Assembly: GCA_022402445.1 (NCBI GenBank)
Contig: JAKRSF010000010.1
Span: 124,001-188,000 of the forward strand
DNA: 64,000 nt
Direction of reading: 5' to 3'
Source of the DNA: Cyanobacteriota bacterium
Lineage (GTDB): Bacteria > Cyanobacteriota > Cyanobacteriia > CACIAM-69d
Shown here: positions 1 to 38,594 of the stretch, in pieces
Layout of the letters: each line of letters starts with the position of its first letter
Numbering within the stretch: position 1 is the first letter of the stretch
The notes under the pieces: model-generated
Told to the model about the DNA's origin: nothing
Database searches by the model: none
Seen by the model: only the letters and a program-made list of their open reading frames with translations
Position numbers and translations under genes: made by a program

Positions 1-792
1 GGGACGATCGCGGATTTGGAGCGATCGCGCGATCGCCTGACGGATCCCAAGCTGATCTATCCCGACTATTACCTCAAACCGTTCCACGCCTATGAGGCCG
101 GAAACCTATGCTGGCTGGCGGCCCTGGAGGCGGCGTCGGCAACCCAGGTGGTGGGCCTGCGGGCCTGGAAGGGGGAACCGCTCCAGGGGACCGAGGGGGA
201 GGAAAAACTCCGGCGCGGTTTCCATGAGGCCCTCGCGCCCCATCTGGAGGCCCACGGCGGGCCGATCGCGCGGGTGCTGGATGTGGGCTGTTCCGTGGGC
301 CTGTCCACGCGATCGCTCCATGGCTATCTCACGGACCGTCAAGGCACGGCTCCGACGACCTTTGGCCTAGATCTGTCGCCCCACATGCTGGCGGTGGCTG
401 AGGCGCTGGACCGCGATCGCGCGATCGCCCGGTGGATCCACAGCACCGCCGAAGCCATGCCCTTCTCCACCGGTCATTTTGATTTAGTTGCCCTGCAATT
501 TATTGTCCACGAACTGCCCCAGCGGGCCACCCGAGCGATTCTGGCGGAGGCGTTTCGGGTGCTGCGTCCCGGCGGCATTTTGGCCATCACCGACAACAAT
601 CCCAAATCACCGGTCATTCAAAACCTGCCCCCGGCCCTGTTTGTGCTGATGAAAAGCACGGAACCCTGGAGCGACGAGTTTTATACCCTGGACATGGAAG
701 GGGCGATCGCGGAGGCCGGGTTTGAGCTGCGATCGGTGGTGCCCAGCGATCCGCGCCACCGGGCCTTAGTCGCGGTCAAACCCGCCGCCTAA
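1..792 (+). CDS. class I SAM-dependent methyltransferase, 5'-truncated by window edge
   Basis: The reading frame is open from base 1, so the true start probably lies before the window; the first usable codon inside is a TTG at 16 (258 residues). A Rossmann methyltransferase core is visible: the glycine-rich SAM loop VLDVGCSVGLST near residue 90, an acidic strand end GLDLS about 30 residues later, and the post-core FDLVALQFIVHELP strand. A conserved aromatic lead-in (YPDYYLKPFHAYEAGN) is, from memory, common in a cyanobacterial methyltransferase family. The substrate cannot be read from the sequence. It converges on the NACHT gene with only 7 bases between stops. Fold sure, function open. Confidence 0.85.
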   Translation, partial: GTIADLERSRDRLTDPKLIYPDYYLKPFHAYEAGNLCWLAALEAASATQVVGLRAWKGEPLQGTEGEEKLRRGFHEALAPHLEAHGGPIARVLDVGCSVGLSTRSLHGYLTDRQGTAPTTFGLDLSPHMLAVAEALDRDRAIARWIHSTAEAMPFSTGHFDLVALQFIVHELPQRATRAILAEAFRVLRPGGILAITDNNPKSPVIQNLPPALFVLMKSTEPWSDEFYTLDMEGAIAEAGFELRSVVPSDPRHRALVAVKPAA

Positions 793-799
793 GTTCTCA

Positions 800-3118
800 C
801 TACTCCAACGGCATCAGTAGGGATTTTTCCAACTCCGCCGCGATCGCCCGACTCGCGGGCATTGCCGCCTGGATGCACTCCACCAAAAACTGGTTATCGC
901 GATAGAACCGGGCCAGGGTCCAGCGTTCATCATCATCCAGCGTCCAATCCCAGCCCAACTGCCGGTGCAGCGCCAGACATTGGCGGAAGCGATCGCCCCA
1001 GGCTGCCCCCTCCCGTCGCCACCAGTCCAGCAGCGCCTCGCGGCCCCCATCCAGCGGCGGCAACTGTTCCCGCAGGGTCGCCAAATCCGCCGCAAATTCC
1101 GGACTCAGGGTCAACTGCCGGTCAAAATCCAGCAGCATCCCGAACGACACCAAAGATTTCACGTCCGGGTGCTCAATGGTGGCATCGCAGGCCGTCAGCA
1201 CCCGCGCCACCGCCAAATCCAATTTCAACGGGGCCGGGAGGGTTTGCCCCAAACTCGGATCCAGGGCGATCGCCAAATTCATATCCCGCGTCTGGAACAG
1301 GGTGAGGTAAAAACTGCGCACCGCCGCCGGGGACACCCCCCCAAGGCCCTCCTGGACCGCCGCCGCCTGCTTCCGGGCGATCGCCCCCAGGATCCCCTGC
1401 AAAAACCCATGGCGCTCAATCACCCCATCAAGCTGCCCCTTCAACTGCTGCAACAGCACCTGGGGACGCGGCAGCATCTCCGACACCAGCAAAATTGTCT
1501 CCCGCCAGCGGGGCTCCGAAAACCGCTTCACCAGCCGCTGAATGGTCGGATCATCCCCCTGGGGCGTCGCCGTGGCCACCAGTTGGCGGGCCGTCAGATA
1601 TTCCTGGAACGTCAGGTGCGAAAAGGAATACACATCCCGCGCCTGCTCCACCAGCAGCCCATGCTGCAACTCCAGACTTTTTAAAATTTGCTCACTCTGG
1701 AGCCACAGGGCTTCCCAATTTTCCTCCTCCGGCACTAGCCCCGACAGCACTAGCCGATCCGCGATCGCGGAAATCGCCTCATTCTTCTCAAAAAAGCAAT
1801 TGCCCGCCTCAAAATTCGTCGCCGCAATACTGCACAGCAGGCCAATCTTGTCCGCCAGCTCCAGTTCCAGCTCGCCGCCCCCATCCCGCTGAATGCCCCT
1901 AGCGCTATCCCAACGCACCAGCAGCAGATCGAGCCCCGCCTGGTAGAGCTTGGAGCGCTTCGTGGGGAAGGTCGATCGCGCCTGAAACACCGAACAGACC
2001 AAACACAGCAGAATCGGCGTCTTGACCAGCTCGCGGATCGAATAATTCTCCCGCTGCTGAAGCCGGTCCAAAAACTCCGCCGCCCGCGCCGCCCCCCCCT
2101 GACCATCGAGGGCCGTGAACCATTGCCGCGCAAAGGTTTCCACCTGGGGCCACGCAAAATCCGCCAGCTCCAGATAGGCAAACCCCCGAAAGCGCACCCC
2201 ATCCGCCGCCAGCCGACAGGTGAGCACCATCGGCGCGCCGTAGTAGGTCTCCGAAAAGGTTTGGATCGCCTGCACCACCACATCGGTACTGTCGGCGGGC
2301 ACCTCATCGAGGCCATCGAGCAGCACCACCATCTGGCCCCGCTGCAACAGGAGCGAAATTTCCTCGCGCCCCAGGCCCGTCCCCTGCCACTGGTCACAGA
2401 TGGGGTCGAGCAACTCCACCGCCCCCCCTTCCTCAATGCGGGCGGCCCAGTGGCGCAGTTCCACGAAGGCGGGTAGGGTGCCCGGTCGAAAGCGCCCCGC
2501 GAGGCATTCGATCGCCACATGCTGCAATAGGGTGGTTTTGCCGGAGCCCGGTCGCCCCAGGACCGCCACCCGTTCCCGCTCCGCGATCGCGGTGGCCGCA
2601 GGCACCAGTTGCGGTGTCCCTGGCCCTTCTCGTCCCCAGCGGCCCGATCGCCCCATCTCCAGATCCGCCACCTCCAGCCACCGCTGACGGCTCAGTTCCA
2701 GGGACACAAACGGGGGCGTATAAATCGCCGACAGGGCCAGGGGCTGGGACGCCTCTAGGGGAGCCTGCACCACCCCACATTGGGCTTCGATGCGTTCCCG
2801 CAGCCGCGATCGCAGGGCCTCTAGATCAAACGTCCGTCCCGCCAACGGGGACAGGGCCGGGGTGATTTGCACCTGTTCCGGCGGCGGCGCTAGGGAGGGC
2901 AGATCCGCCACCTCCTGCCAGTCGAGCCCCAGGCGGAAGCAAATTTCCAGGAAGATATAGCGCTCAATGGGCCGCCCCGTGAAAAATTTCCAGATGGATT
3001 GCCGAGTGCTCAGCCCCACCTCGGCGGCCAGGTATTCCTGGGTCCAGCCGGTTCTTTCAAAGGCTCGCTTCGCGTGGAGGATGCCCTCGGGTGTGGCTTT
3101 TAGCGATCGTTTGCCCAT
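800..3118 (-). CDS. NACHT-domain STAND NTPase with N-terminal helix-turn-helix region
   Basis: About 772 residues. I chose the internal ATG at 3118 (MGKRSLKATPEG) because cyanobacterial relatives, as I recall them, begin there; an in-frame ATG at 3142 would add eight residues. Order: a helix-turn-helix-like segment (about 20-60, WTQEYLAAEVGLSTRQ), a linker, the NACHT ATPase with Walker A GRPGSGKTT (about 188-196) and Walker B VVLLDGLDE (about 264-272), then a helical C-terminal half ending in a conserved region rich in Trp and acidic residues. There are no LRR, TPR or WD repeats. Bacterial NACHT proteins include antiphage sensors as well as regulators; which applies here is inference. It stands alone on its strand, with no effector gene beside it. 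Confidence 0.88.
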   Translation of the reverse strand: MGKRSLKATPEGILHAKRAFERTGWTQEYLAAEVGLSTRQSIWKFFTGRPIERYIFLEICFRLGLDWQEVADLPSLAPPPEQVQITPALSPLAGRTFDLEALRSRLRERIEAQCGVVQAPLEASQPLALSAIYTPPFVSLELSRQRWLEVADLEMGRSGRWGREGPGTPQLVPAATAIAERERVAVLGRPGSGKTTLLQHVAIECLAGRFRPGTLPAFVELRHWAARIEEGGAVELLDPICDQWQGTGLGREEISLLLQRGQMVVLLDGLDEVPADSTDVVVQAIQTFSETYYGAPMVLTCRLAADGVRFRGFAYLELADFAWPQVETFARQWFTALDGQGGAARAAEFLDRLQQRENYSIRELVKTPILLCLVCSVFQARSTFPTKRSKLYQAGLDLLLVRWDSARGIQRDGGGELELELADKIGLLCSIAATNFEAGNCFFEKNEAISAIADRLVLSGLVPEEENWEALWLQSEQILKSLELQHGLLVEQARDVYSFSHLTFQEYLTARQLVATATPQGDDPTIQRLVKRFSEPRWRETILLVSEMLPRPQVLLQQLKGQLDGVIERHGFLQGILGAIARKQAAAVQEGLGGVSPAAVRSFYLTLFQTRDMNLAIALDPSLGQTLPAPLKLDLAVARVLTACDATIEHPDVKSLVSFGMLLDFDRQLTLSPEFAADLATLREQLPPLDGGREALLDWWRREGAAWGDRFRQCLALHRQLGWDWTLDDDERWTLARFYRDNQFLVECIQAAMPASRAIAAELEKSLLMPLE

Positions 3119-3694
3119 AGTTTTTTGGCGCAGCAGTGGCAATGGCCCCGGTGGTGGGGGAGGAGATTACCAAGGATCTTGGCAATCTGGCCCTTTTCCA
3201 TTTAAGGGGGGACGGTCGGATTTTGGGGAGATTTTTTTCGGTTTGGCCGCTGGGGGCGGCGATCCCCCTGGCTTTTGGGGAACAATGGTTGGATGGGTGG
3301 GCCGCTGCCCCTGGGGGATGGGTGAGGGAACGATTATACGGGGGGCGATCGCGGCGGCAGGGGCGAGGGTGCCAGGGGCACAGGTGTCAGGGGCACGGGC
3401 CAGCGCTAGGATGGGAAACAGCTAAAAAAATTCCAAATGAATTAAGGATCAAGCGAACGGGACCGGGATCCGGGATCCATGGGGGCGATTGGGGGATGGG
3501 CGGGGACGGGGCGGACCGATCGCACGGGTGACTGGGAAAGTTTGACCCCTAGGGCGTTGCCTGCGGCATGGTTCCCCAGGGGATTTTGCAGCGTTGTGGC
3601 CCCCTTCGGTGTGGATGCCGGGGGGGTGGGGGAAGTGAGGCATGGGGCTGTTGGAATGGCTGATCCTAAATGATGCGCGAGGTTGATACGGTCC
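3119..3694. other. intergenic region between divergent genes
   Basis: 576 bases separate the divergent NACHT and PAS-REC-HPt genes, so both promoters should lie here. An A-rich stretch near 3423-3445 is the only AT-rich patch. At 3370-3399 there is a 15-base direct repeat in tandem (TGCCAGGGGCACAGG then TGTCAGGGGCACGGG, 13 of 15 identical). I see no credible protein, tRNA or terminator. Confidence 0.5.
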
Positions 3695-5158
3695 ATGGTG
3701 TTTCAGTTTGAAAATCGCGATCGCGCGATCGTTGACCCATCCCTGCCCCTGCCGATTCTGGTGGCGGCCCTCGATGGGGTGCGGGAGGCCGTGGTGATCT
3801 GTGACGCCCAGGGGCGGGTGCGGTGGTGCAACCGGGCCTTTGGGCAACAGTGCCACCGCGATCGCCCTGCCCTGGTGGGGGTTGCCATTGATGATCTGCT
3901 GCACTGCGTGAATGGCCAGGGCCAGCGCCTCGGGACCGGTCCCCTGTGGGCGGCGGTGCGATCGCGCTCCACCGGCACCGGACGGGTTCACCCGAATTGG
4001 ACCCAGCCCGCCGCCCCCTGGATGATGACCTGGACCCGCCCCCTGGCCTCAGCGGGGTTGGTGGTGCTCCACCTCTGGACCGATGGGGAACGGATGGCCT
4101 GCCCCCGGGAACAGGCGGGGGTGCCCCTCCCAATACTGCGATCAGGGGCCGGGGAGGGGCGCGAACTGCGCAGCAAGGCCCAGCCTCCCCCTGGGCACCA
4201 GGCCCCCGATCCGGCCCCCAACACCGCGCCCTTGGCCCCCCGGCCCACACTCCACCAACCCACCAGCGGCCCTGGCTTCCCCCTGCGGGTGCTGCTGGCG
4301 GAGGATAACCGGGTGAATCAACAGGTGGCGCGGCTGATGTTGCAGCGGCTGGGCTATGAGGCCACGGTGGTTGACGATGGCCTCGCGGCGCTCCAGACCG
4401 TGGAGCGGGACCATTACGATTTGATTTTGATGGATGTGGAAATGCCGCGCATGGATGGGCTCACCGCCGCCCGGACCATTGTGCAACGGCATCGGTGGTC
4501 TAGGCTGTCCTCCGCATCCCCTGAAGCGCGGGGGGGCCGATCGCCCTATATTGTGGCCCTGACGGCCTATGCCATGCCCGGCGATCGCGATCGCTGCCTG
4601 GAGGCGGGCATGGATGACTACATCACCAAACCCCTGCGGGAGGAGACCCTGATGGCGGTCCTGGCCCAGGCGGCCCAGCGGGCGGCGGCGGCAGCAGCGG
4701 CAGCCCCGGATCCGGCAGCCCCCCCAACGCCCACCCCCCAGGGACCAAGCCAGCCCCATCCGGCGGGAACCTCGGCGATGGCCGCCGCGATCGCGGACCT
4801 CGAGCAGCATCCGATCCTGGATGTCGCCGTCATTGGCGATCTCAAACGCATGGCCGGTCAGCGGGCCGCCGCCCTCCTGGCCACCATCACCCAGCAGTAC
4901 GGCGAAGACAGCCCCAAACGCCTCGATGAGGTAACCATCGCGATCGCCCACCGGGACAGCGAACGCCTCCGCAAAGCCGCCCACAACCTGCGATCGAGCA
5001 GCGCCAACCTGGGGGCCTTGCGCCTCGCCGCGATCGCCGAACTGGTGGAAAACCACGCCCGCCAGGGAAAAACCTCCGAGATTGATGACCTCCTACCCAA
5101 ACTGCGAGAGGAGTATGAGAAGGTGATGGAGCGATTGCCACTAGCGATTGAGGAATGA
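3695..5158 (+). CDS. PAS-REC-HPt phosphorelay protein lacking a histidine kinase domain
   Basis: 487 residues from ATG 3695 (a TTG at 3683 is in frame but has no better ribosome site). Residues about 20-131 look like a PAS sensor (AVVICDAQGRVRWCNRAF). A low-complexity Pro-rich linker of about 60 residues follows. A receiver domain starts near 196 with acidic pocket AEDN, phosphoacceptor Asp about 247 in LILMDVEMP, and the conserved Thr (ALTAY) and Lys (TKP). The C-terminus is an HPt domain with its histidine near 430 in AHNLRSSSANLGA. HisKA and HATPase_c, expected between PAS and REC in a hybrid kinase, are absent. It probably accepts phosphate from another kinase and passes it on. Its stop overlaps the next gene's start (ATGA). 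Confidence 0.88.
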   Translation: MVFQFENRDRAIVDPSLPLPILVAALDGVREAVVICDAQGRVRWCNRAFGQQCHRDRPALVGVAIDDLLHCVNGQGQRLGTGPLWAAVRSRSTGTGRVHPNWTQPAAPWMMTWTRPLASAGLVVLHLWTDGERMACPREQAGVPLPILRSGAGEGRELRSKAQPPPGHQAPDPAPNTAPLAPRPTLHQPTSGPGFPLRVLLAEDNRVNQQVARLMLQRLGYEATVVDDGLAALQTVERDHYDLILMDVEMPRMDGLTAARTIVQRHRWSRLSSASPEARGGRSPYIVALTAYAMPGDRDRCLEAGMDDYITKPLREETLMAVLAQAAQRAAAAAAAAPDPAAPPTPTPQGPSQPHPAGTSAMAAAIADLEQHPILDVAVIGDLKRMAGQRAAALLATITQQYGEDSPKRLDEVTIAIAHRDSERLRKAAHNLRSSSANLGALRLAAIAELVENHARQGKTSEIDDLLPKLREEYEKVMERLPLAIEE

Positions 5159-6210
5159 GCCAGCCAGACGCCCGATCCCCAGACCCAGCCCCCCCTGAAG
5201 CGCCCCCCCTCGTCCTGATCGTTGACGACGATCGCTCCATGCGCATGTTGTTGGCCCTGGCGATGGAAGAGGAGGGCTACCACACCCTCGAAGCCAGGGA
5301 CGGAGAGCAGGGCCTTGAGGAGTTTCAGCGCAGCCGCCCGGACATGATTTTGCTCGATGCGGTGATGCCGGGAATGGACGGCATTGAATGCTGCCGCCAG
5401 CTCCGCACCATGCCGGGGGGCGATCGCGTGCCCATTTTGATTGTGACGGTCCTCGACGATCGCGAGTCGGTTGATCGCGCCTTCGAGGCGGGGGCCACGG
5501 ACTACATCACCAAACCGATCTACTGGCCGGTGCTCTGTCAGCGGGTGCGGCGGCTGCTGGAGGCCAACCAATCCCAGGCCAAGGTCCGCCGCACGGGGGA
5601 ACAGATTGAAGCCTTGCAGTCCTGGGCGGCGGTGGTGGAAGCCCTAGGCAAGCTGCTGGCGGACCAGGCGGATCCGGTGAATTCTAGCGGCGATTGCCCC
5701 TGTTCCCCCCCGGTGCGGGCGGTTTCCATCGAGGCCCTGGTGCCGATCCTGACGATCGCGCGGGCGGCCTTTGGGGCGCAGGGGCTGGGGGTGGTGTATT
5801 GGGGGGCGGCGCGATCGCCCGAGGGACGCTGGATTGACGATGGCCAAACCCCCGCTCCCCCCCTCGGTGCCCTGGCCGCCGCCGCGATCGCCTGGCCCCT
5901 GGCGGACCATCCCCAACCCCGGATTTTGACCTGGCCCCCGCCCTTCCCCGCCGCCCAAACCCTCCTGCGGGCCTGCCAGGGGGAACAGGTGGCGATCGCC
6001 CCCCTCGGAGCCTGGGGGCTGCTGGTGGCCCGCCTGCCGGAGACGGCCCGGTGGACCCCTGATGGGCTCCTGGGCCGGTGGCAAACCCTCAGCCACCTGT
6101 TGAGCTATGCCCTTGGAGCCCCGAGGCCAGGGCCAAACGCCCCCCCGAGCGCCCCCCCCGGCCCAGGGGCTCCCTGTCCGTCCCCCCCGACGGAAGCCCC
6201 CTGTCCCTAG
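5155..6210 (+). CDS. response regulator, REC domain plus GAF-like C-terminus
   Basis: 351 residues; the start ATG overlaps the previous stop by 4 bases, implying translational coupling. An N-terminal receiver domain (about 18-135) has the acidic pair VDDD, phosphoacceptor Asp68 in MILLDAVMPGMDG, Thr98 and Lys121 (TKPI). A short helical segment follows, then about 150 residues that resemble a diverged GAF domain (GLGVVYWG ... VAIAPLGAWGLLVARL). I see no DNA-binding, GGDEF, EAL or kinase output. It may receive phosphate from the HPt domain encoded immediately upstream. The Pro-rich C-terminal 25 residues look disordered. Confidence 0.86.
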   Translation: MSQPDARSPDPAPPEAPPLVLIVDDDRSMRMLLALAMEEEGYHTLEARDGEQGLEEFQRSRPDMILLDAVMPGMDGIECCRQLRTMPGGDRVPILIVTVLDDRESVDRAFEAGATDYITKPIYWPVLCQRVRRLLEANQSQAKVRRTGEQIEALQSWAAVVEALGKLLADQADPVNSSGDCPCSPPVRAVSIEALVPILTIARAAFGAQGLGVVYWGAARSPEGRWIDDGQTPAPPLGALAAAAIAWPLADHPQPRILTWPPPFPAAQTLLRACQGEQVAIAPLGAWGLLVARLPETARWTPDGLLGRWQTLSHLLSYALGAPRPGPNAPPSAPPGPGAPCPSPPTEAPCP

Positions 6211-6256
6211 TGCTGTTTGCTGTCCTAACCCTGTCGCCCCGATCGCGGATCGTCGG

Positions 6257-7300
6257 GTGTCCACCGCCGTGCCACTGAACTTTTCCCTCGGACCGATCCA
6301 GGCCATGCTGACCCAATTTGGCCTGCGGATCCTCGCCGCGATCGCGATCGCCACCCTGGGCCTGTGGGGGGCGCGGGTGGTCCGCCAAGCGGTCCGCCGC
6401 ATGATGGGCCAGCGCCACCTAGATGTCACCCTGGTGGCCTTCGCTGGCAACCTGGCCTATGTGGGCATCATCGCCTTCAGCGCGATCGCGGCCCTGGGGC
6501 AGGTGGGCGTTGACACCGCCTCAATTTTGACCGTCCTGGGGGCGGCGGGCCTCGCGATCGGCCTTGCCCTCCAGGGATCCCTCTCCAACTTCGCCGCCGG
6601 TATTTTGCTGGTGCTCTTTCGCCCCTTCAAGGTAGGGGATTTTATTGAAGGGGCCGGTGCCAGCGGCTATGTGGTCGAAATCCAATTCCTCTCCACCCTC
6701 GTCCGCACCCGCCAAAATAAACTCGCCATCATCCCCAATAGCGAACTGGTGGAGGGCAAAATCATCAACCACTCCACCGAGCCCTATATCCGCGTGGATG
6801 TGACGATTTCCGTGGACGGCCGTGAGGGGGCCAAGCGGGTGCATCGGGTGCTCCTGGAGGAGGTGCAGCGCCGTCCCTTGGTGCTGGCGGATCCGCCGCC
6901 GACGGTGGGGCTCATGGCCCTAGGGGAAGGGGCGATGCAATTTATGGTGCAGGCGTGGGTGGCGACCCCCAACCACTATTGGGTGGTGCATTTTGCCCTC
7001 AATGAGGCCATCAAGGAACGGTTTGATCGCGAGGGTATCCGCCTGCCGGAGCCGCCCCTGACGGAGATGGCCGAGGCGATTCGGGAGGCGCTCCACGATG
7101 GACCGACCGACGGCGCGGCGGATGAGGGAGCTGCTAAGGGGGATGCCGAGGGGGAGGGGGATGTCGGGGACGATCGCCCGGAGCCGGAGTCCGGGGCGGC
7201 CCTGGGGGCGGTGGCTAATCTGGGGGTGGGGGGCGATCGCGTGGGCAGTGATCCCCAGGGGGATGGGGCTGATGCTGGCGCTGGCGCTGACGCTGGGTGA
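6257..7300 (+). CDS. mscS: MscS-family small-conductance mechanosensitive ion channel
   Basis: About 347 residues from the GTG at 6257; GTG 6269 and ATG 6305 are alternatives, and the open frame further upstream is Pro/Arg-rich and overlaps the previous gene. Residues align with E. coli MscS through TM1, TM2 and the pore helix TM3 (GAAGLAIGLALQGSLSNFAAG, quoted in two parts: GAAGLAIGLALQ and GSLSNFAAG), then the beta domain (FRPFKVGDFIEGAG, IPNSELVEGKIINHS) and the alpha/beta domain. The inner-membrane channel opens under hypo-osmotic tension. A C-terminal tail of about 75 residues rich in Gly, Asp and Ala is unlike E. coli and may be disordered. It follows the two signalling genes on the same strand after 46 bases, so co-transcription is plausible. 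Confidence 0.9.
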   Translation: MSTAVPLNFSLGPIQAMLTQFGLRILAAIAIATLGLWGARVVRQAVRRMMGQRHLDVTLVAFAGNLAYVGIIAFSAIAALGQVGVDTASILTVLGAAGLAIGLALQGSLSNFAAGILLVLFRPFKVGDFIEGAGASGYVVEIQFLSTLVRTRQNKLAIIPNSELVEGKIINHSTEPYIRVDVTISVDGREGAKRVHRVLLEEVQRRPLVLADPPPTVGLMALGEGAMQFMVQAWVATPNHYWVVHFALNEAIKERFDREGIRLPEPPLTEMAEAIREALHDGPTDGAADEGAAKGDAEGEGDVGDDRPEPESGAALGAVANLGVGGDRVGSDPQGDGADAGAGADAG

Positions 7301-7306
7301 GGGAAT

Positions 7307-8464
7307 CTAGGGCGGCTCGGCGGCCATCACTAGGGCGCTGTTGACGCCGCCAAAGCCAAAGGCCAGGGTCAGGGCCGCCGCGATCGCCCTGGGGCGGGCG
7401 GTGGTGATCAGGTCCAGGGGGGGAAAGGCTGACTGGCCCAGGCCAACGCAGGGGGGTAACACCTGCCGGTGCAGGGCCAAGAGGGTCAGGGCTGCGCCGA
7501 TCGCGCCGGAGGCCCCGAGGGTATGGCCCGTGGCCCCTTTGGTGGAACTGGCGGGGATGCCGTCGGGCCAGCGGGTTTGGATCAGGTGCGCCTCGCGGGC
7601 GTCGTTGAGGGCGGTGCCGGTGCCGTGGGCGTGGACATAGCCGATCGCGGTGGGGCCTAGGATGGCTTCAGATCGGGCGATCGCCAAATCCATCGCCCGC
7701 TGCGCTGCCTTGAGATCTAGCCCCGGAGCCACCGATCGCTCCGCATCCACCGTGCTGCCGCTGCCCAGGATCGTGCCGTAAATTCTGGCCCCGCGCGCGA
7801 TCGCCGCCTCCCGGCCCTCCAGGAGCAGCAGCGCCCCCCCCTCCCCCAGGGCAAAGCCATCGCGATCGCGGTCAAAGGGCCGCAGGCCAGACGGGCTCAG
7901 GGCTCCCATTTTCAAAAAACCCGCGATCGTCAGGGGGGTAATCGGCGCTTCAATGGCCCCGGCGATCACCCCGTCACAGTGGCCCGATCGCACCAGGTCG
8001 GCCCCCTGGGCGATCGCCACGAGGCCCGTTGCGCAGGCGGCCATGGGGGCGATCGCCGGTCCCGAGGTGCCACAGGCCGCCGCGATCGCCGCCGCCACGG
8101 ACCCCGGCCAAACCAAGGGCCAAGATTTTGGGGAACCACCCCCCTTAGTCCCCTCGCATCGCCAGCGCTCCAGATTTCCTTGAAAACTGCGGCTAGACCC
8201 CACCGCCACCCCCCAGCGATCGCCCAGGGGGGCCGTCAGGCCAGCATCCTCCAGCACCGCCGCCCCCAGCCGCCCCGTCAGGGTGAGGAGGTCCACCGGC
8301 CCCGACGGATCCAGCAATCCCAACGGCAGCGGCGGCAAGTCCCCAAAGGGTTGCGCCCGAACCAGGCCCGATTTCCCCCGGAGCAGTTGCCCCCAGGTGG
8401 CCTCGCGATCGCTCAGCGCCGTCGCCAGGGCAATCCCCGTCACCACCACCGCCTCTGGTCCCAT
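7307..8464 (-). CDS. beta-ketoacyl-ACP synthase (KAS II-like)
   Basis: 385 residues, shorter than the roughly 415 of the usual FabF. The thiolase-fold catalytic triad is complete: Cys144 in MAACATGL, His280 in HAHGTGT and His314 in TGHTLGASGA, plus the C-terminal glycine-rich FGFGGVNSALV. The enzyme condenses malonyl-ACP with acyl-ACP in fatty acid elongation. Because it is short and not next to acpP, it is more likely a second KAS than the main fabF; I leave the symbol blank. It converges on mscS and is followed on the same strand by the cyclophilin gene's 3' end 30 bases away. Confidence 0.9.
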   Translation of the reverse strand: MGPEAVVVTGIALATALSDREATWGQLLRGKSGLVRAQPFGDLPPLPLGLLDPSGPVDLLTLTGRLGAAVLEDAGLTAPLGDRWGVAVGSSRSFQGNLERWRCEGTKGGGSPKSWPLVWPGSVAAAIAAACGTSGPAIAPMAACATGLVAIAQGADLVRSGHCDGVIAGAIEAPITPLTIAGFLKMGALSPSGLRPFDRDRDGFALGEGGALLLLEGREAAIARGARIYGTILGSGSTVDAERSVAPGLDLKAAQRAMDLAIARSEAILGPTAIGYVHAHGTGTALNDAREAHLIQTRWPDGIPASSTKGATGHTLGASGAIGAALTLLALHRQVLPPCVGLGQSAFPPLDLITTARPRAIAAALTLAFGFGGVNSALVMAAEPP

Positions 8465-8493
8465 GGATCCCGCGATCGCAACGCCGCCCGATC

Positions 8494-9378
8494 CTAGGGT
8501 TGCGGCGTTTCCGGCGAGGCCGGTGTGCCATCGGGCATTTCATCCGACGGGCTATCCGGCGTCCCGTCGGGCGCATCTTCCGCCGTGGAACCCGCCCCCG
8601 TCAGGTTTTCGAGGCCGCTAACCACCGTGGCCCGCACAATGCGATCGCCCTGCTGGATGCTATCAACCACATCGAGCCCCTCGGTCACATAGCCAAAGAC
8701 CGCGTAGCTGCCATCGAGCATCGGCAAATCCGACAGGGCGAAATAGAACTGGGCCGACGCCGAATCGGGAGCGGGCGATCGCGCCATGGCCACCGCCCCC
8801 CGCAGGTGCTTCAGGGCCGGTTCCACGGACCCCAGGCCCGCCATCTCAAAGGTGGCCCCATAGACCGGCTTCGGCTCCCCCGCCGGCAGAATTTCCAGGG
8901 GGATCAGGCGCGGCTGCTGGGTCTGCGGCTCAATGAAACTGCCCATCCCCAACTGGGACAGGGGCACCTTCGGATCCTTGCTCTGGGGATCGCCCCCCTG
9001 CACCACAAAGGGCGACGGCTCCCGCACCACCCGATGGAACGAGGTGCCGTCATAGACGCCCCGCTGCACCAGATCCACAAAATTTCCCGCCGTGAGGGGA
9101 GCCTTTTCGCCATCGAGCTGCATTTCAATGGTGCGGGGCGGATCCGCCTCCGGTGCCCCTTCGGATTTCACCTCCAGGCGCACGGTCGCAGGCCCTGTCA
9201 GTTGCGGCAACCCCCGATAGGCCGGGTCCAACTCATCCGGCGCAACGGCGGCGGGGGCTCCGGTCTCGGGGGCCGTTGATCCCGATGGGGGGGAAGCGGT
9301 TTGGGGGGCTCCGCCACACCCCGCGATCGCGATTACCAGCGCCATCACAACGCCCAAGCGCCAGCCCAATCCCTGCAT
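8494..9378 (-). CDS. peptidyl-prolyl cis-trans isomerase, cyclophilin type, lipoprotein
   Basis: The start at ATG 9378 is supported by a GAGG ribosome site about 6 bases upstream; an in-frame ATG at 9408 is rejected. The first 20 residues are a lipoprotein signal (hydrophobic stretch ending IAGC), so the mature protein is probably lipidated on the periplasmic or lumenal side. A cyclophilin domain follows: FHRVV, FVVQGGDP, a variant of the long cyanobacterial loop (PLEILPAGEPKP), VAMARS, SASAQFYFAL and FGYVTEGLDVV. The last 35 residues are an acidic Pro/Asp/Thr/Ser tail with near-repeats of PDGTP. Proline isomerisation of exported proteins is the family role; the client is unknown. Confidence 0.92.
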   Translation of the reverse strand: MQGLGWRLGVVMALVIAIAGCGGAPQTASPPSGSTAPETGAPAAVAPDELDPAYRGLPQLTGPATVRLEVKSEGAPEADPPRTIEMQLDGEKAPLTAGNFVDLVQRGVYDGTSFHRVVREPSPFVVQGGDPQSKDPKVPLSQLGMGSFIEPQTQQPRLIPLEILPAGEPKPVYGATFEMAGLGSVEPALKHLRGAVAMARSPAPDSASAQFYFALSDLPMLDGSYAVFGYVTEGLDVVDSIQQGDRIVRATVVSGLENLTGAGSTAEDAPDGTPDSPSDEMPDGTPASPETPQP

Positions 9379-10589: not shown

Positions 10590-11648
10590 ATGACCATCGC
10601 AGTTGGACGCGCGAGCGCAGAGCGGGGATGGTTCGACGTCCTCGACGACTGGCTCAAACGCGACCGCTTTGTGTTTGTGGGCTGGTCCGGCCTGCTGCTG
10701 TTCCCCTGCGCCTACCTGGCGGTTGGGGGCTGGCTGACGGGGACCACCTTCGTGTCGTCGTGGTACACCCACGGCCTCGCCTCCTCCTACCTGGAGGGTT
10801 GCAACTTTCTGACCGTCGCCGTCTCCACCCCCGCCAACAGCCTGGGCCACTCCCTGCTGCTGCTGTGGGGTCCTGAGGCCCAGGGGGACTTCGTCCGCTG
10901 GTGCCAACTGGGGGGCCTGTGGAACTTCGTGGCGCTGCACGGAGCCTTCGGCCTGATCGGCTTCATGCTGCGTCAGTTTGAAATTGCGCGCCTGGTGGGC
11001 ATCCGTCCGTACAACGCGATCGCCTTCTCCGGCCCGATCGCCGTGTTCGTGTCCGTGTTCCTGATGTACCCCTTGGGTCAATCGGGCTGGTTCTTCGCCC
11101 CCAGCTTCGGCGTCGCATCGATCTTCCGATTCCTGCTGTTCCTGCAAGGGTTCCACAACTGGACCCTGAACCCGTTCCACATGATGGGCGTGGCTGGGAT
11201 TCTGGGCGGTGCCCTGCTGTGCGCCATCCACGGAGCAACGGTGGAGAACACCCTGTTCCAAGATGGTGACAAAGCGAACACGTTTGGAGCGTTTGAACCG
11301 ACCCAAGCGGAAGAGACCTATTCCATGGTGACGGCGAACCGTTTCTGGTCGCAGATCTTCGGGATTGCGTTTTCGAACAAGCGCTGGCTGCACTTTTTCA
11401 TGCTGTTCGTGCCGGTGACGGGGCTGTGGATGAGCTCCGTGGGCATTGTGGGTCTGGCGCTGAACTTGCGTGCCTATGACTTCACGTCGCAGGAGATCCG
11501 TGCGGCTGAGGATCCTGAATTCGAGACGTTCTACACGAAGAACATCCTGCTGAACGAGGGCATCCGTGCGTGGATGGCTCCGCAGGATCAACCCCACGAA
11601 AAATTCGCATTCCCTGAGGAGGTTCTGCCCCGTGGAAACGCCCTTTAA
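10590..11648 (+). CDS. psbD: photosystem II D2 reaction-centre protein
   Basis: 352 residues, the standard D2 length. It begins MTIAVGRA and contains the five-helix reaction-centre fold with the chlorophyll/pheophytin and iron-binding helices ([18 protein letters not shown] with the special-pair His, and [13 protein letters not shown] with the non-haem iron His). It binds QA and forms the PSII core with D1. The ATG is preceded by GAGAGG at 10575-10580. The 3' end overlaps psbC by 17 bases in another frame, the classic psbDC arrangement. GCGATCGC occurs only once inside the gene, unlike surrounding DNA. Confidence 0.99.
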
Positions 11649-13017
11649 TAGCGCAATGGTGGTGGGCGGTCGCGACCAGGAATCCACTGGATTCGCCTGG
11701 TGGGCCGGTAATGCTCGCCTGATCAACCTGTCCGGTAAGCTGCTCGGTGCCCACGTGGCCCACGCTGGCTTGATCGTGTTCTGGGCCGGTGCGATGACGT
11801 TGTTTGAACTGTCGCACTTCATCCCCGAGAAGCCCATGTACGAGCAGGGCTTCATCCTGCTGCCCCACCTGGCGACGCTGGGTTTGGGCGTTGGCCCCGG
11901 TGGTGAAGTGGTGGATACGTTCCCCTACTTCGTTGCGGGTGTGCTGCACCTGATTTCTTCGGCGGTGCTGGGCCTCGGTGGTATCTACCACGCGGTGCGC
12001 GGTCCTGAGACCCTGGAAGAGTATTCGTCCTTCTTTGGCTATGACTGGAAGGACAAGAACCAGATGACGAACATCATCGGCTATCACCTGATCCTGCTGG
12101 GTTGCGGTGCGCTGCTGCTGGTGTTTAAGGCGATGTTCTTTGGCGGTGTGTATGACACCTGGGCCCCCGGTGGTGGGGATGTGCGGGTGATTACGAATCC
12201 GACGTTGAACCCGGCGACGATTTTTGGCTACCTGCTGAAGGCTCCCTTCGGTGGTGAGGGCTGGATCATCTCCGTGAACAACATGGAGGACATCATCGGT
12301 GGCCATATCTGGATTGGCCTGATCTGCATTTCCGGTGGGATTTGGCACATTCTGACCAAGCCGTTTGGCTGGGCGCGTCGTGCGCTGATCTGGTCGGGTG
12401 AGGCTTATCTGTCCTACAGCCTTGGGGCGCTGTCCCTGATGGGCTTCATCGCTTCGGTGATGGTGTGGTACAACAACACGGCTTATCCGAGCGAGTTCTA
12501 CGGTCCTACGGGTCCTGAGGCTTCCCAGGCGCAGGCGCTGACGTTCCTGGTGCGTGACCAGCGTTTGGGTGCGAACGTGGGTTCTGCCCAAGGTCCGACG
12601 GGTCTGGGTAAGTATCTGATGCGATCGCCGTCGGGTGAGATCATCTTCGGTGGTGAGACGATGCGCTTCTGGGATTTCCAAGGCCCTTGGCTGGAGCCCC
12701 TGCGCGGTCCGAATGGTTTGGATCTGAGCAAGATCAAGAATGATATTCAGCCTTGGCAAGCGCGCCGGGCGGCTGAGTATATGACCCATGCGCCTCTGGG
12801 TTCGCTGAACTCGGTGGGTGGGGTTGCGACGGAGATCAACTCGTTTAACTACGTGTCTCCTCGTGCTTGGTTGGCGACGTCCCACTTCGTGCTGGCGTTC
12901 TTCTTCTTGATTGGTCACCTGTGGCATGCGGGTCGCGCCCGTGCGGCGGTGGCTGGTTTCGAGAAGGGCATCAACCGCGAACTGGAGCCGGTGCTGACGA
13001 TGCCGGATCTCGACTAG
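11632..13017 (+). CDS. psbC: photosystem II CP43 chlorophyll-binding antenna protein
   Basis: 461 residues from GTG 11632 ([13 protein letters not shown]); the frame is open further upstream inside psbD, but this GTG sits 8 bases after GAGGAGG in the psbD end and matches the known CP43 N-terminus. Six membrane helices with many His ligands and the large lumenal loop ([21 protein letters not shown] near the end) are present. CP43 transfers excitation to the PSII reaction centre and contributes a Glu/Arg side to the manganese cluster. The second half uses GGT/CCT/GCG codons heavily, typical of strongly expressed genes. Confidence 0.98.
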
Positions 13018-34637: not shown

Positions 34638-37600
34638 TTAATACAGTTGCTCTAGGTTGATGCTGTAGTCCTCGCGATCGCGGGTCAAATTGGGGCTATA
34701 GCAGGGATCCGCATCGAGGATTTGGTGCCAGCGGCGGCGCATATATTCAATTTCCCCCTGGAAGCGGCGCACCTTTTCCGGGGTGTTTTCTAGGCCACGG
34801 CTCTTGGATTCGTAGTGGTAGAGCACCACATGGGGCAAATGGACATTGCGATAGCCCCACTCCAGCAATTTCAAACAGAAATCCACATCGTTAAACGCCA
34901 CCTGCAACGACGGTTCAAAGCCCCCCACCTCTAGAAAAACTTCGCGGCGACACATCAAACAGGCGGCGGTGACGGCGGAATAATTATTGATGGTTTTGAG
35001 CTGCGCCCCGTAGCCCGGATCGCCATGGGGATAGTTCTTGTGGCTGTGGCCCGCAACGCCCCCCAGCCCCAGCACGACGCCCGCATGTTGGATGGTGCGA
35101 TCGGGATAGAGCAAGGTCACCCCCACGGCTCCGATGCTGGGGCGCTGGGCCTGTTCCACCAGGGCGGTCATCCAATCCCCGTCAATAATTTCCGTGTCGT
35201 TGTTCAAAAAGAGCAGGTACGGGCTATCGGTTTGCTCGACGCCAAAGTTGTTGATTTTGGAGTAGTTAAAGGGCGCATCGTAAGCAACAACGCGGAAGCG
35301 ATCGCCCTCCCGTTCCCGCCAGCGATCGAAGAGTTTTTCCGTGGCGGGTTCGACGCTGCCGTTATCGATAATTAAAACTTCGTAATCGGCGTAGGTGGTC
35401 TTTTCAAAGAGGGATTTGAGGCAGGTGTCGAGGACATCGGCCAAATCGCGGGTGGGGATGATCACGGTGACGCGACCGGGCCGCAGGATTTGATAGCGCA
35501 CAATCCAATGGCCGTGGTCCGTCAGCTCCAGTTTGGCGGCGGGTTCCCCCCGGCGATCGAGGGCCTCCGTGAGGGCGCGGCGGGCGGCGTCGGCGGCATA
35601 GTTTTTGCTGTCGAGGCGGAAGGCGGTGGATTGGCGGTGGCTGCGCCAGTGGTAGAGGATTTTGGGGATGTGGACGATCTGGTCAGGCCGGATCTGTTCG
35701 ATCGCGCGGAGGGCCAAGTCATAATCCTGCGCCCCTTCAAAACCGGGCCGGAAGCCCGCGATCGCGGTGAGGAGCGATCGCCGGTAGACGCTCAGGTGGC
35801 AGGTGTACATGCGCGACAGGAAACTGTCGGGACACCAGTCGGGCTTGAAGGCGGGATCACTGCGGCGATCGGCCTCGTCGATTTTGTCCTCGTCGCTGTA
35901 GATCAGGGCCGCGTCGGGTTTTTCACGTAAACGGTGGACCACTTCGTAGAGGGCGTGGGGGGCGAGGCGATCGTCGTGATCCAGCAGGGCGATCCAGTCC
36001 CCCGTGGCGAGATCGAGGGCGTCGTTGGAGGCGGCGACGATGTGGCCGTTTTCCGGGCGAAGTTTGAGGCAAATGCGCCCATCGCTGGCGGCGGCGGCTT
36101 CCAGCAGGGGGCGCACCTGGGGATCCGTCGAGGCATCATCCACCACGCACAGTTGCCAATGGGGATAGACCTGCTGGCGGACGGAGGCGATCGCGGCCTC
36201 CAGAAATTCCAAGGGCGGATTGTAGACCGGCATCACAATGCTGATCCGGGGCGGATTGTCCCAGGTGGTGATCTCTCGGGCCATGCGCCGCAGGTCCGCC
36301 TCCGTGGGGTCATGGTGCCGTCGCCACAGGTCGTAGTGATCATTGGGGCTGCCGAGGGCCGCGATCGCGCCGGGATTGCCGGGACCATCAGCGCCGTCCC
36401 CCGCCTCCAGAAGCGTCGCCATTTTGTTCAACTGCACTGGCACCAGATCCACCATTTCCGGCGTGGCGGTTTTGCCCGTCAGTTTCAGTAATGGCTTTTT
36501 GAGGGTGAACCAGCGATCGCGCAGTTTCCAGAACTTACTGGTGCGCATGGCCTCAAAACTGCTGCTGGCCAGGTCATAGAGCGATCGATAGGCCCGCTGC
36601 CACTGGGCGATCGCGCCGCGCAGGGCCTCGATTTCCCCTTCGAGGGTTTGGCGAATCTGTTGCAGATCGTCCCGCTCCCGCTGCAAGAGATTGCGCTCCC
36701 GCTGGAGATCCTGGACGGTGGTGCGCAGGGTTTCCACTTCCCGCTGGTAGGCCGGGAGCTGCCGCTGGAGGGGCTGGAGTTTGAGGGTGGCCTCCGCGAG
36801 CAAATTGAGATGGTGCTGGGCGGCGGCGATCGCGCGATCGCGTTCCTGCTGAAACGTAGAAATTTGGTTGGCAAGCTCTGAGGTCTGTTGGCGCGCTTCG
36901 AGGAGTTCCACGTCCTTATAGGCAAAAATCGCCGGGAAATTGGCCGTATACAGCGCCAAATGCTTACTGACCAGGTAATACATCAGGCGGCGGCGGTTAC
37001 TGGGCTGATTGCAGGCGGCCACCATGGAATCCGCCCGCACCCGGTATTCAAAGGAAATTTCCCCTAGGTGATGGAACTGCCAGCCCCGTTCGGCGGCGCT
37101 CAGCCACAGATCCCAGTCCTCGTAGCCGAGGCGATCGGGAATGTGGGGATCATAGCCGCCGCAGTCGGCCCACACCTGTTTCCGCAGGGGGGCGCAGGCG
37201 TCGATGTAGTTGCCCACCGCCAGAAGGTTGATGTCAAAATCCGCCACGATCCACGGGCCGACGCGATCGCCGATATATTCCGCATTGCCATAGACGACGC
37301 CCACCTCGGGATGGGCATCAAATATCGCGATCGCCTGGGGGATGTAGAGGGGCCGCAGGCGGTTGTCCGCGTCCAGGGGCAGGATGTAGTCGGCGCGGGC
37401 GGCGCGGATGCCCACATTGCGGGCGTTGGCGAGGCCGCCGTTGGTGGGGCAGTCGATGACGCGGTAGCCGTGGGTTTTCAGGTACTGCAAGATCGCCTGG
37501 GTTTTCGGCTCCGTCGAGGCGTCATTGACGATGATGATTTCGTAAACGGGTTCGGGGCAGCTATGGACGCTGGCGATCGCCTCTAGGAGATAGTCGCCGT

Positions 37601-38594
37601 GGTTGTAGCAGGGGATGACGACGGAGAGTTTGGGGGGCGTGTCGTCGGTGCTGTTCTGGATCGCCGGGATGGCGGGGGCGGCGGGCAGGGCGATCGCCTC
37701 CTGGACCGTCAGGGGCGTGTAGGGGGGATTTTGTCGCCCGGAGTGCCAGCGGTCGGCGCGATCACGGGGGGCGGGCCAATCGGCGATCGCATCGAGATCC
37801 AGCAGCCATTGGAGGGCGTAGGGCACATCCTGGCCCACCCAGGTGGCGAGGGGATGGCTGTCGGGCAACGGCGCGATCGCGGGGCCATCCAGGACGAAAT
37901 TATCGAGATCCAAATCCGTCGGCAGATCCAATCCCAACCGTTGGGCCAATAATTCTAGGGCCGCGCCGGGGCGATCGCGCAAACTCGGGCCGTGGAGCAG
38001 AACCACGCGATCGCGGTGGCGCTGATAGAAATCCAGGAGATGGGCGGCGTAGTAGGCCCAAACCTGCACCGTTTCCATCGGCAAATTTTCCAGGGGCGAC
38101 CCTTCCCCCTTGCACAGGGCCGCGATCGCATCCCAGGGAGTGTCATAAACGAGCACATAGCGCCCCTCCGGCAGCCGCGATCGCCAGAAATCCAGCAGCA
38201 GCGTCGAACGGGCATCCCCCCAGCCCCAGGGCCGCTCCAAGCCCGCATTCGCCTCCCAGGCCGCCCGCAACAGCCGCCGCCCGCGATTTTCTGGATCCTG
38301 GAAGCGATCGCCCCCAAACGCCTCGATCTTGTTCCATCCCCACTCGGGCAGGCGATCGCGCACCGTAGACACCGCCGGTTCCCCATCCGCCGCTTCAGCA
38401 GATTGGAGGGCCGTCACGCGATCGCACGCCGCCGCCAACAACTCCTTCTGGAACCCAAACAGGGCCGCCGCCGGATCGCTAGCGACATCTTCAGCATCCG
38501 CCAGGGCGATCGCCACCCCCAGCCGCCCCAACAGATCCGCCACCGGACGCAGATCAACACCGGGGGTACTCGCCAGCAAAAAATAAGCAGTCAT
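34638..38594 (-). CDS. multidomain glycosyltransferase: sulfotransferase-like head and three GT2 domains
   Basis: 1318 residues. Order: about 1-260 resembles a sulfotransferase-type domain (PWGWGDARSTLLLDFWRSRLPEGRYVLVYDTPW) but lacks an N-terminal PAPS loop; GT2 domain 1, 322-525 (SVVIPCYNHGDYL, DxD-type LDADN, EDWDLWL); a coiled coil, about 560-690; GT2 domain 2, 783-990 (SIVMPVYNPPLEFL, LDHDD, QDYDLALR); and GT2 domain 3, 1040-1290 (TVIIPTRDLADVL, LNNDTE, NDVDFCLKLLEWGYR). It probably adds successive sugars to an envelope polysaccharide, O-antigen or S-layer glycan. It stands alone, without an adjacent polysaccharide cluster. The domain reading is from visible motifs. Confidence 0.9.
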   Translation of the reverse strand: MTAYFLLASTPGVDLRPVADLLGRLGVAIALADAEDVASDPAAALFGFQKELLAAACDRVTALQSAEAADGEPAVSTVRDRLPEWGWNKIEAFGGDRFQDPENRGRRLLRAAWEANAGLERPWGWGDARSTLLLDFWRSRLPEGRYVLVYDTPWDAIAALCKGEGSPLENLPMETVQVWAYYAAHLLDFYQRHRDRVVLLHGPSLRDRPGAALELLAQRLGLDLPTDLDLDNFVLDGPAIAPLPDSHPLATWVGQDVPYALQWLLDLDAIADWPAPRDRADRWHSGRQNPPYTPLTVQEAIALPAAPAIPAIQNSTDDTPPKLSVVIPCYNHGDYLLEAIASVHSCPEPVYEIIIVNDASTEPKTQAILQYLKTHGYRVIDCPTNGGLANARNVGIRAARADYILPLDADNRLRPLYIPQAIAIFDAHPEVGVVYGNAEYIGDRVGPWIVADFDINLLAVGNYIDACAPLRKQVWADCGGYDPHIPDRLGYEDWDLWLSAAERGWQFHHLGEISFEYRVRADSMVAACNQPSNRRRLMYYLVSKHLALYTANFPAIFAYKDVELLEARQQTSELANQISTFQQERDRAIAAAQHHLNLLAEATLKLQPLQRQLPAYQREVETLRTTVQDLQRERNLLQRERDDLQQIRQTLEGEIEALRGAIAQWQRAYRSLYDLASSSFEAMRTSKFWKLRDRWFTLKKPLLKLTGKTATPEMVDLVPVQLNKMATLLEAGDGADGPGNPGAIAALGSPNDHYDLWRRHHDPTEADLRRMAREITTWDNPPRISIVMPVYNPPLEFLEAAIASVRQQVYPHWQLCVVDDASTDPQVRPLLEAAAASDGRICLKLRPENGHIVAASNDALDLATGDWIALLDHDDRLAPHALYEVVHRLREKPDAALIYSDEDKIDEADRRSDPAFKPDWCPDSFLSRMYTCHLSVYRRSLLTAIAGFRPGFEGAQDYDLALRAIEQIRPDQIVHIPKILYHWRSHRQSTAFRLDSKNYAADAARRALTEALDRRGEPAAKLELTDHGHWIVRYQILRPGRVTVIIPTRDLADVLDTCLKSLFEKTTYADYEVLIIDNGSVEPATEKLFDRWREREGDRFRVVAYDAPFNYSKINNFGVEQTDSPYLLFLNNDTEIIDGDWMTALVEQAQRPSIGAVGVTLLYPDRTIQHAGVVLGLGGVAGHSHKNYPHGDPGYGAQLKTINNYSAVTAACLMCRREVFLEVGGFEPSLQVAFNDVDFCLKLLEWGYRNVHLPHVVLYHYESKSRGLENTPEKVRRFQGEIEYMRRRWHQILDADPCYSPNLTRDREDYSINLEQLY

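What the first reader, a model, noticed from the sequence alone, without database searches (positions are those of the whole stretch)
3695..7300. Kinase-less phosphorelay (PAS-REC-HPt, then REC-GAF-like) leading into an MscS channel
The first gene keeps a complete REC and a complete HPt histidine site but has lost HisKA/HATPase, with a Pro-rich linker where they should be. The second overlaps it by ATGA. A mechanosensitive channel gene follows in the same direction, suggesting that an unlinked kinase, perhaps osmosensing, feeds this module.
Basis: partly seen in the sequence, partly recalled or inferred. Interest (0 to 1): 0.5.

Follow-up and report, generated by a model that had tools for sequence, protein, structure and literature searches.

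The report
XssS-type hybrid kinase lacking its kinase
In this cyanobacterium a regulatory gene set related to the one that controls sulfated slime production in Synechocystis has kept its phosphate-relay parts but lost the enzyme core that normally starts the signal, and the channel gene behind it looks like an unrelated neighbour.

Summary
Gene 1 (3695-5158) is PAS-REC-HPt with no histidine-kinase core, gene 2 (5155-6210) is REC plus a diverged GAF-like tail overlapping it by ATGA, and mscS follows. The interpretation needs changing. The kinase was lost, not absent from the start: the syntenic locus in another genus of the same family has a full PAS-PAS-GAF-HisKA-HATPase-REC-REC-HPt kinase followed by a REC-GAF regulator. 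The conserved neighbour is not mscS but the divergent NACHT gene (800-3142). All three match the regulators XssQ, XssS and XssR of the sulfated-exopolysaccharide cluster of Synechocystis 6803: NACHT/XssQ 40% over nearly full length; gene 2/XssR 35%; gene 1 aligns with both ends of XssS, the kinase middle missing. mscS was matched at no other of 73 loci, though most hold little sequence downstream. Loss of the kinase core recurs: 4 of 13 NACHT-linked sets lack it in the sequence held. Catalytic residues are kept and the REC-HPt part evolves no faster than its intact sister, so it is probably in use. Whether it relays phosphate from an unlinked kinase, drains the XssR homologue, or is a remnant is not shown. 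A new variant of a known regulatory set, of moderate interest.

The parts
800..3142 (-). NACHT-type STAND protein, XssQ homologue (780 aa; N-terminus like that of XssQ, NACHT, NCH2)
   Evidence: Pfam NACHT E 1.2e-12, NCH2 E 1.5e-19; 39.6% over 781 columns to XssQ, E 1e-180
3143..3694 (.). divergent intergenic region between the NACHT gene and gene 1
   Evidence: ORF map
3538..3546 (+). AAGTTTGAC, exact match to the published XssQ consensus AAGTTXXAC
   Evidence: expected 0.03 in this stretch, but only 2 in the whole window against 2.5 expected; suggestive only
3695..5158 (+). gene 1: kinase-less XssS homologue, PAS-REC-HPt (487 aa)
3764..3904 (+). PAS domain, best Pfam stretches
   Evidence: PAS_4/PAS_8/PAS, all just below cut-off; aligned with the N-terminal PAS of XssS
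4112..4288 (+). Pro-rich linker where PAS2-GAF-HisKA-HATPase-REC1 stand in XssS
   Evidence: sequence; blastp against XssS
4289..4663 (+). REC domain (equivalent to REC2 of XssS) with Asp, Thr and Lys motifs
4892..5125 (+). HPt domain with AAHNLRSSSANLGA
5155..6210 (+). gene 2: XssR homologue, REC plus diverged GAF-like tail (351 aa), ATGA overlap with gene 1
   Evidence: REC E 1.1e-29; 34.8% over 319 columns to XssR; REC 66% to the syntenic regulator of G001
6269..7300 (+). mscS; adjacent, probably not part of the set
   Evidence: Pfam; not found with related sets where enough flank is held

Best explanation
Genes 800-3142, 3695-5158 and 5155-6210 are an XssQ/XssS/XssR-type regulatory set in which XssS has lost its kinase core (second PAS, GAF, HisKA, HATPase, first REC; roughly 800 residues) but kept an N-terminal PAS, the second REC and the HPt. 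Likely working: the REC-HPt stub still exchanges phosphate with gene 2 (the XssR homologue), and gene 2 controls the DNA-binding NACHT activator (the XssQ homologue). The phosphate either comes in trans from another kinase (about 0.4) or runs backwards from gene 2 through the HPt to the REC and is lost as Pi (about 0.35); a mere remnant is less likely (about 0.2). Shown here: domain content, homology, synteny, loss of the core, kept catalytic residues, no faster evolution than the intact sister. Inferred: phosphotransfer, its direction, and control of the NACHT protein, which rests on published genetics in Synechocystis. Identity of the set about 0.88; the relay-in-use reading about 0.6.
For: Synteny: G001 has NACHT (46%) divergent from a 1285-aa full hybrid kinase followed by REC-GAF. 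Synechocystis pSYSM: the locus is matched by the window's NACHT and gene 2; gene 1 aligns to XssS 935-1206 and to XssS 24-68. REC-HPt tree: window is sister to the G001 kinase (95/84), inside a 10-row group of XssS-type proteins (94/97; 9 distinct, G068 entered twice); end branches 1.47 and 1.46. Tajima tests: 0 of 6 outgroups show faster change in the window REC-HPt than in G001 (lowest p 0.098). Parallel cases: of 77 gene 2-type regulators at 73 loci, 40 have a full kinase ending in HPt just upstream (within 350 bp), 5 a kinase-less REC-HPt (window included; in L245 the REC is partial), 4 an HPt only (in L228 it is split between frames), 1 a kinase without HPt, 6 another REC, 21 none; 3 of those 21 have a full kinase 410-603 bp upstream. 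The 289-aa stubs of G043 and G029 differ with dN 0.032, dS 0.151, ratio 0.21; their congener G056 has a 1524-aa kinase there. Published: deleting xssS raises exopolysaccharide, deleting xssR or xssQ abolishes it, and XssQ overexpression bypasses loss of xssR (PMC8205485, passages); XssQ plus XssR suffice without XssS in S. elongatus (PMC13125312, passages). Reverse relay precedent: ArcB (PMC11620690, passages).
Against: No exopolysaccharide cluster was found beside the set: none of the 7 Sulfotransfer_3 (PF13469) matches in the genome (5 genes by my reading) is on the window's contig (other sulfotransferase families were not searched), and no intergenic XssQ box was found in about 72 kb around them; no tandem boxes in the genome. 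The XssQ box was absent from 8 of 14 stretches tested, window and pSYSM included. The PAS of gene 1 is closer to a PAS of a nucleotide-cyclase protein in G001 (45%, E 1.7e-10) and its counterpart in G003 (41%, E 7e-9) than to that of XssS (E 0.004 in the same database), so it may be a swapped-in PAS. Two NACHT-linked kinases (G011, G285) fall outside the XssS group in the tree. No close relative allows a dN/dS test of gene 1 itself.
Confidence: 0.6

Rival explanations
1. The stub is a phosphate sink only: it removes phosphate from gene 2 by HPt and REC (reverse relay) and has no kinase input, so it is the phosphatase half of XssS kept alone.
For: Loss of XssS raises output in Synechocystis, so XssS normally suppresses XssR (PMC8205485); ArcB dephosphorylates ArcA by this route (PMC11620690); RcsC of P. 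aeruginosa is described as relay and phosphatase (PMC3842833). REC and HPt motifs kept.
Against: HPt-only stubs beside related regulators (4 of 77) cannot drain to Pi through a REC of their own. The passages I read do not say whether XssR is active with or without phosphate.
Confidence: 0.3
2. Gene 1 is a vestige: gene 2 and the NACHT activator run without any kinase, and the REC-HPt part is on its way out.
For: XssR and XssQ suffice without XssS in a foreign host (PMC13125312); NACHT plus gene 2-type regulator stand without kinase or HPt in about 16 kb held of two congeneric genomes, G125 and G140.
Against: Open frame with in-frame PAS, REC and HPt, catalytic residues kept, and no rate increase against G001; sister-case stubs under purifying selection.
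Confidence: 0.2
3. One reading: a kinase-less phosphorelay built to control the MscS channel, fed by an osmosensing kinase.
For: Same strand, 58-bp gap, no terminator-like site in it. Downstream sequence is short at most related loci (median 736 bp), so linkage elsewhere is not fully excluded.
Against: mscS at 1 of 73 loci, the window itself; absent downstream in the syntenic G001 locus, 5.8 kb held; 4 of 4 best MscS homologue loci without a match to the gene 1 or gene 2 REC.
Confidence: 0.08
4. Assembly or sequencing artefact: the kinase is present but missing from the contig.
For: Among the genomes searched only this one carries exactly this form.
Against: The place is over 120 kb inside a 420-kb contig of a 99.93% complete genome; the frame is open across the junction; no kinase fragment in six frames of window 1-9000; the genome's best match to the G001 kinase is a different complete kinase on C7.
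Confidence: 0.04

Closest known systems
XssS/XssR/XssQ of Synechocystis sp. PCC 6803 (plasmid pSYSM, synechan cluster; PMC8205485)
   Same: Same three families side by side; NACHT 40%, REC-HPt 40%, regulator 35% identity; REC-HPt of gene 1 in the XssS group
   Different: Kinase core missing from the XssS homologue; NACHT gene divergent from the relay genes, whereas in pSYSM xssQ meets xssR end to end; no Sulfotransfer_3 match on the same contig
RR-HPt proteins of the two-component census (PMC4558063)
   Same: REC and HPt without kinase in one protein; the census lists 312 RRHPt proteins (passages)
   Different: That class is defined by architecture; here ancestry from one hybrid kinase, and its cognate regulator, can be named
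ArcB of E. coli
   Same: REC and HPt that can carry phosphate in both directions (PMC11620690, passages)
   Different: ArcB keeps its kinase; gene 1 matches the NCBIfam ArcB model only over its REC-HPt end, 93.9 bits against a cut-off of 838
RcsC of P. aeruginosa PA14 (PMC3842833)
   Same: Described as relay and phosphatase for a regulator that another kinase (PvrS) activates (passages)
   Different: A sensor with HisKA; no homology test made here beyond domain type
NACHT antiphage proteins such as EruA
   Same: NACHT domain
   Different: 24.8 bits against a cut-off of 1000; weak PADLOC matches only; XssQ is the near full-length match

Membership tests
XssS/XssR/XssQ regulatory set | XssQ: STAND protein with N-terminal DNA-binding HTH | tested here: met
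   NACHT and NCH2 over cut-off; alignment to XssQ over residues 9-771 of 780. HTH_31 itself only E 0.056
XssS/XssR/XssQ regulatory set | XssR: REC regulator without DNA-binding domain | tested here: met
   REC and no DNA-binding domain in Pfam; 34.8% to XssR over 319 columns
XssS/XssR/XssQ regulatory set | XssR: GAF domain at the C-terminus | tested here: inconclusive
   XssR and the G001 regulator have GAF hits; gene 2 has none, profile E 0.23
XssS/XssR/XssQ regulatory set | XssS: sensor histidine kinase with HisKA and HATPase | tested here: not met
   absent in protein and six frames
XssS/XssR/XssQ regulatory set | XssS: C-terminal REC-HPt of the XssS group | tested here: met
   tree; blastp
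XssS/XssR/XssQ regulatory set | Set lies near a sulfated-exopolysaccharide cluster | tested here: not met
   no PF13469 match on contig C13; PF00685 and PF03567 not searched
XssS/XssR/XssQ regulatory set | XssQ boxes (AAGTTXXAC) before target genes | tested here: inconclusive
   one box in the divergent intergenic region, none near sulfotransferases outside ORFs
XssS/XssR/XssQ regulatory set | Genetic order XssS suppresses XssR, XssR activates XssQ | not testable with these tools
   needs mutants
RR-HPt architecture class | REC and HPt in one protein, no kinase domain | tested here: met
Osmosensing relay controlling MscS | Conserved linkage of the relay with mscS | tested here: not met
   1 of 73 loci, the window, with short downstream flanks at most; 0 of 4 MscS homologue loci with a matching REC

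The most novel reading that the evidence does not exclude
Cyanobacteria repeatedly shed the kinase core of XssS-type and related hybrid kinases while keeping the REC-HPt or HPt part next to its regulator, so that control of a NACHT-type transcription activator is handed to unlinked kinases or to a kinase-free phosphate drain: a phosphorelay kept in use without a kinase of its own.
Probability: 0.4. Interest if true: 0.55.

Novelty: new variant of a known kind. Interest (0 to 1): 0.42.

Why it matters
The XssS/XssR/XssQ pathway is a genetically studied case of a two-component system acting on a NACHT-type activator; the passages I read do not say whether XssS acts on XssR as kinase or as phosphatase. 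Genomes that lost the kinase core and kept REC-HPt are natural experiments on that point: if the stub still suppresses, the suppressing activity lies in REC-HPt, not in the kinase. The survey also shows kinase loss in several separate lineages, so hybrid kinases can shed their engine and keep the relay. On print: the search for XssS, XssR, XssQ and synechan found 47 papers and listed 15; I read passages of two (12 of 17 and 12 of 16 places, plus part of one Discussion) and saw no mention of kinase-less forms; supplements were not available, so earlier notice cannot be excluded.

Tried and rejected
MscS/osmosensing: not supported as a conserved link. My first count for it showed the mscS flag only for the 57 of 71 loci that printed a regulator, so I recounted all 73 loci and raised that rival's odds from 0.07 to 0.08 because the downstream flanks proved short. 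Antiphage NACHT: weak PADLOC and NCBIfam matches only, far below the NCBIfam cut-off, while XssQ matches over nearly full length. Never-had-a-kinase: rejected by the syntenic kinase of G001 and by XssS. Kinase moved elsewhere in the same genome: the best own match to the G001 kinase without its last REC and HPt is G000:C7, itself a complete hybrid kinase with HPt; a second, G000:C3, has two REC and no HPt and its last REC is 52% identical to that of gene 1, so it is a candidate donor, no more. XssQ target genes: tandem-box search of the genome empty, no intergenic box near sulfotransferases. The PAS as proof of an internal deletion: the position fits, but a PAS in a cyclase protein of G001 is closer, so I do not claim a single deletion event. 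Genome-contig search: 80 of 338 relatives kept, mostly from other phyla; not followed up except as part of the PAS database.

Counts dropped: 4 loci (L210, L241, L243, L259) were left out because L263, L267, L265, L266 cover the same places. Flanks are uneven: L263 and L265-L268 were fetched wider because a NACHT match was already known there, so 13 NACHT-linked loci of 73 may be an undercount. Places fetched were those at about E 1e-40 or better; I did not fetch G015:C308, G208 or the weaker places, and G285 only through its NACHT match (L268). NACHT controls: 15 of the places listed that had no listed gene 2-type regulator were fetched (L264, L269-L282); 0 of 15 had one, while 7 of 15 had other REC or kinase genes.
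Full report
Gene 1 starts at ATG 3695 and ends at 5158; gene 2 begins inside its stop (ATGA, 5155-5158) and ends at 6210; mscS follows on the same strand. Pfam finds REC and HPt in gene 1 and REC in gene 2 with strong scores; the PAS is just below its cut-off. Kinase, HPt, REC and GGDEF profiles built here, run over all six frames of window 1-9000, find only the three expected domains and no kinase remnant. The window lies in a 4.08-Mb genome, on a 420-kb contig, completeness 99.93%; the reading frames at 10590-13017 look like psbD and psbC, so it is a cyanobacterium (recognised by eye; no call names the organism).

The kinase was lost. In 59 relatives the best matches to gene 1 are mostly C-terminal parts of long frames, and the best matches to gene 2 lie directly downstream of several of the same kinases. 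I fetched ten such loci; all ten have a kinase with REC and HPt followed by a gene 2-type regulator. The closest, G001 (same family, another genus), is syntenic: a NACHT gene (46% identical over nearly full length) divergent from a 1285-aa PAS-PAS-GAF-HisKA-HATPase-REC-REC-HPt protein, then a 308-aa REC-GAF protein. After it come a trypsin-like and an OprB protein, not mscS.

What the set is. A paper search for NACHT with two-component terms led to the synechan cluster of Synechocystis 6803 (PMC8205485; passages and part 1 of 2 of the Discussion read). There XssQ, a STAND protein with an N-terminal DNA-binding domain, is the activator, XssR its response regulator and XssS the sensor kinase; loss of xssS raises exopolysaccharide, loss of xssR or xssQ abolishes it, and XssQ overexpression works without xssR. 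Read directly, XssS is PAS-PAS-GAF-HisKA-HATPase-REC-REC-HPt and XssR is REC-GAF. Pairwise: NACHT to XssQ 39.6% over 781 columns; gene 2 to XssR 34.8% over 319; gene 1 to XssS 40% over the REC-HPt end, plus a short match of the PAS to the first PAS of XssS at the same position. The simplest reading is loss of everything between. I do not claim one clean deletion, because a PAS of a nucleotide-cyclase protein in G001, and its counterpart in G003, is more similar to that of gene 1 than the XssS PAS is.

The NACHT gene is the partner. Of 73 gene 2-type regulator loci (the window and pSYSM included), 13 have a NACHT homologue (E 1e-60 or better) within the fetched flanks. Nine of the 13 have a full kinase; four show none in the sequence held: the window (REC-HPt beside the regulator), G017 (a REC-HPt gene right behind the NACHT gene), and the congeneric G125 and G140 (regulator and NACHT only). 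In G068 kinase, regulator and NACHT follow each other on one strand, the last two overlapping. Fifteen NACHT homologue loci fetched as controls have no gene 2-type regulator; seven of the fifteen have other two-component genes nearby. mscS was matched at 1 of 73 loci, the window itself; but the sequence held downstream of the regulator is short (median 736 bp; 24 of 77 regulators have 1 kb or more and 17 have 3 kb or more, window included), so this speaks mainly for the loci with long flanks, G001 and other NACHT-linked sets among them.

Is the stub alive? In a tree of 49 REC-HPt rows the window is sister to the G001 kinase (95/84) within a group of XssS, G068 (entered twice), G001, G152, G184, G233, G264 and G017 (94/97); end branches 1.47 and 1.46. 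Tajima tests against six outgroups show no significant excess of changes in the window (p 0.098 to 0.79); controls with gene 2 (p 0.64 to 1) and the NACHT protein (p 0.067 to 0.68) show none either. The phosphate-accepting Asp, the Thr and Lys of REC and the HPt His motif are present (motifs recalled; alignment). G011 and G285, also NACHT-linked, fall outside that group, so linkage and ancestry do not coincide fully. Kinase-less REC-HPt needs four changes on the tree, at least three by well-supported branches: the window, G017, the pair G043/G029, and G012. The end branch of G017 is long (1.82), so its place is unsure. The pair G043/G029 is the cleanest parallel: 289-aa REC-HPt genes where their congener G056 has a 1524-aa kinase, with dN/dS 0.21 between them. 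Over all 77 regulators, 40 have a full kinase ending in HPt within 350 bp upstream, 5 REC-HPt without kinase (one with a partial REC), 4 HPt only (one split between frames), 1 kinase without HPt, 6 another REC, 21 none of these; 3 of the 21 have a full kinase a little further up.

Mechanism. In a foreign host XssR and XssQ activate targets without XssS (PMC13125312, passages), so a set without kinase can still be active. A REC-HPt stub can then do two things: pass phosphate from an unlinked kinase to gene 2, or drain gene 2 by the reverse route known for ArcB (PMC11620690, passages); a sensor acting as both relay and phosphatase is described for RcsC (PMC3842833, passages). The genome has 8 HPt matches and 91 HATPase matches, some of them split pieces of one gene, so donors are plentiful; one HPt-less hybrid kinase on contig C3 is a candidate. 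I cannot separate the two routes by sequence.

Against the reading as an exopolysaccharide regulator: the Sulfotransfer_3 matches of the genome are on other contigs (other sulfotransferase families not searched), without intergenic XssQ boxes in the fetched surroundings (two boxes there lie inside ORFs), and no tandem box was found in the genome. The single box at 3538-3546 is expected 0.03 times in its stretch, but the window as a whole has no excess of exact boxes, and 8 of 14 stretches tested have none. What this set controls here is therefore open.

Novelty. REC-HPt proteins without kinase are a known architecture (312 in the census of PMC4558063, passages) and XssS/XssR/XssQ is a known set. 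What is added is that a defined set has lost its kinase core, that this has happened more than once, and that the remaining relay is not evolving faster than an intact one. Other papers were seen only as search listings with the start of their abstracts.

Noticed in passing
L263:7122-13036 (G017:C1): REC regulator, NACHT gene and a kinase-less REC-HPt gene on one strand (two reverse-strand ORFs between the first two): a second NACHT-linked relay without kinase, of different gene order.
   Followed up: partly
L212:1556-2425 and L221:7114-7983, against L218:1677-6251: Congeneric genomes with and without the kinase core in front of the same REC-GGDEF gene; the G056 form also has two extra small genes, one of them a REC.
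   Followed up: partly
L209, L216, L248, L228: HPt-only genes before gene 2-type regulators, a further step of erosion; in L228 the HPt is split between frames.
   Followed up: no
L264, L271, L273, L275, L276, L278, L282: Other XssQ-like NACHT genes stand near different REC or kinase genes, so two-component control of this NACHT family may be wider than Xss.
   Followed up: no
window 7055-7300: The MscS protein ends in an acidic low-complexity tail of about 60-80 residues beyond the part that matches its four best homologues.
   Followed up: no
window 34638-38594: 1318-aa protein with three glycosyltransferase-2 stretches; its N-terminal 300 residues have no Pfam match at E 0.01 and look sulfotransferase-like by eye only.
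   Followed up: partly
L184:5729-10012 (G001:C133): Nucleotide cyclase with several PAS domains, one of which is the closest match found to the PAS of gene 1.
   Followed up: partly
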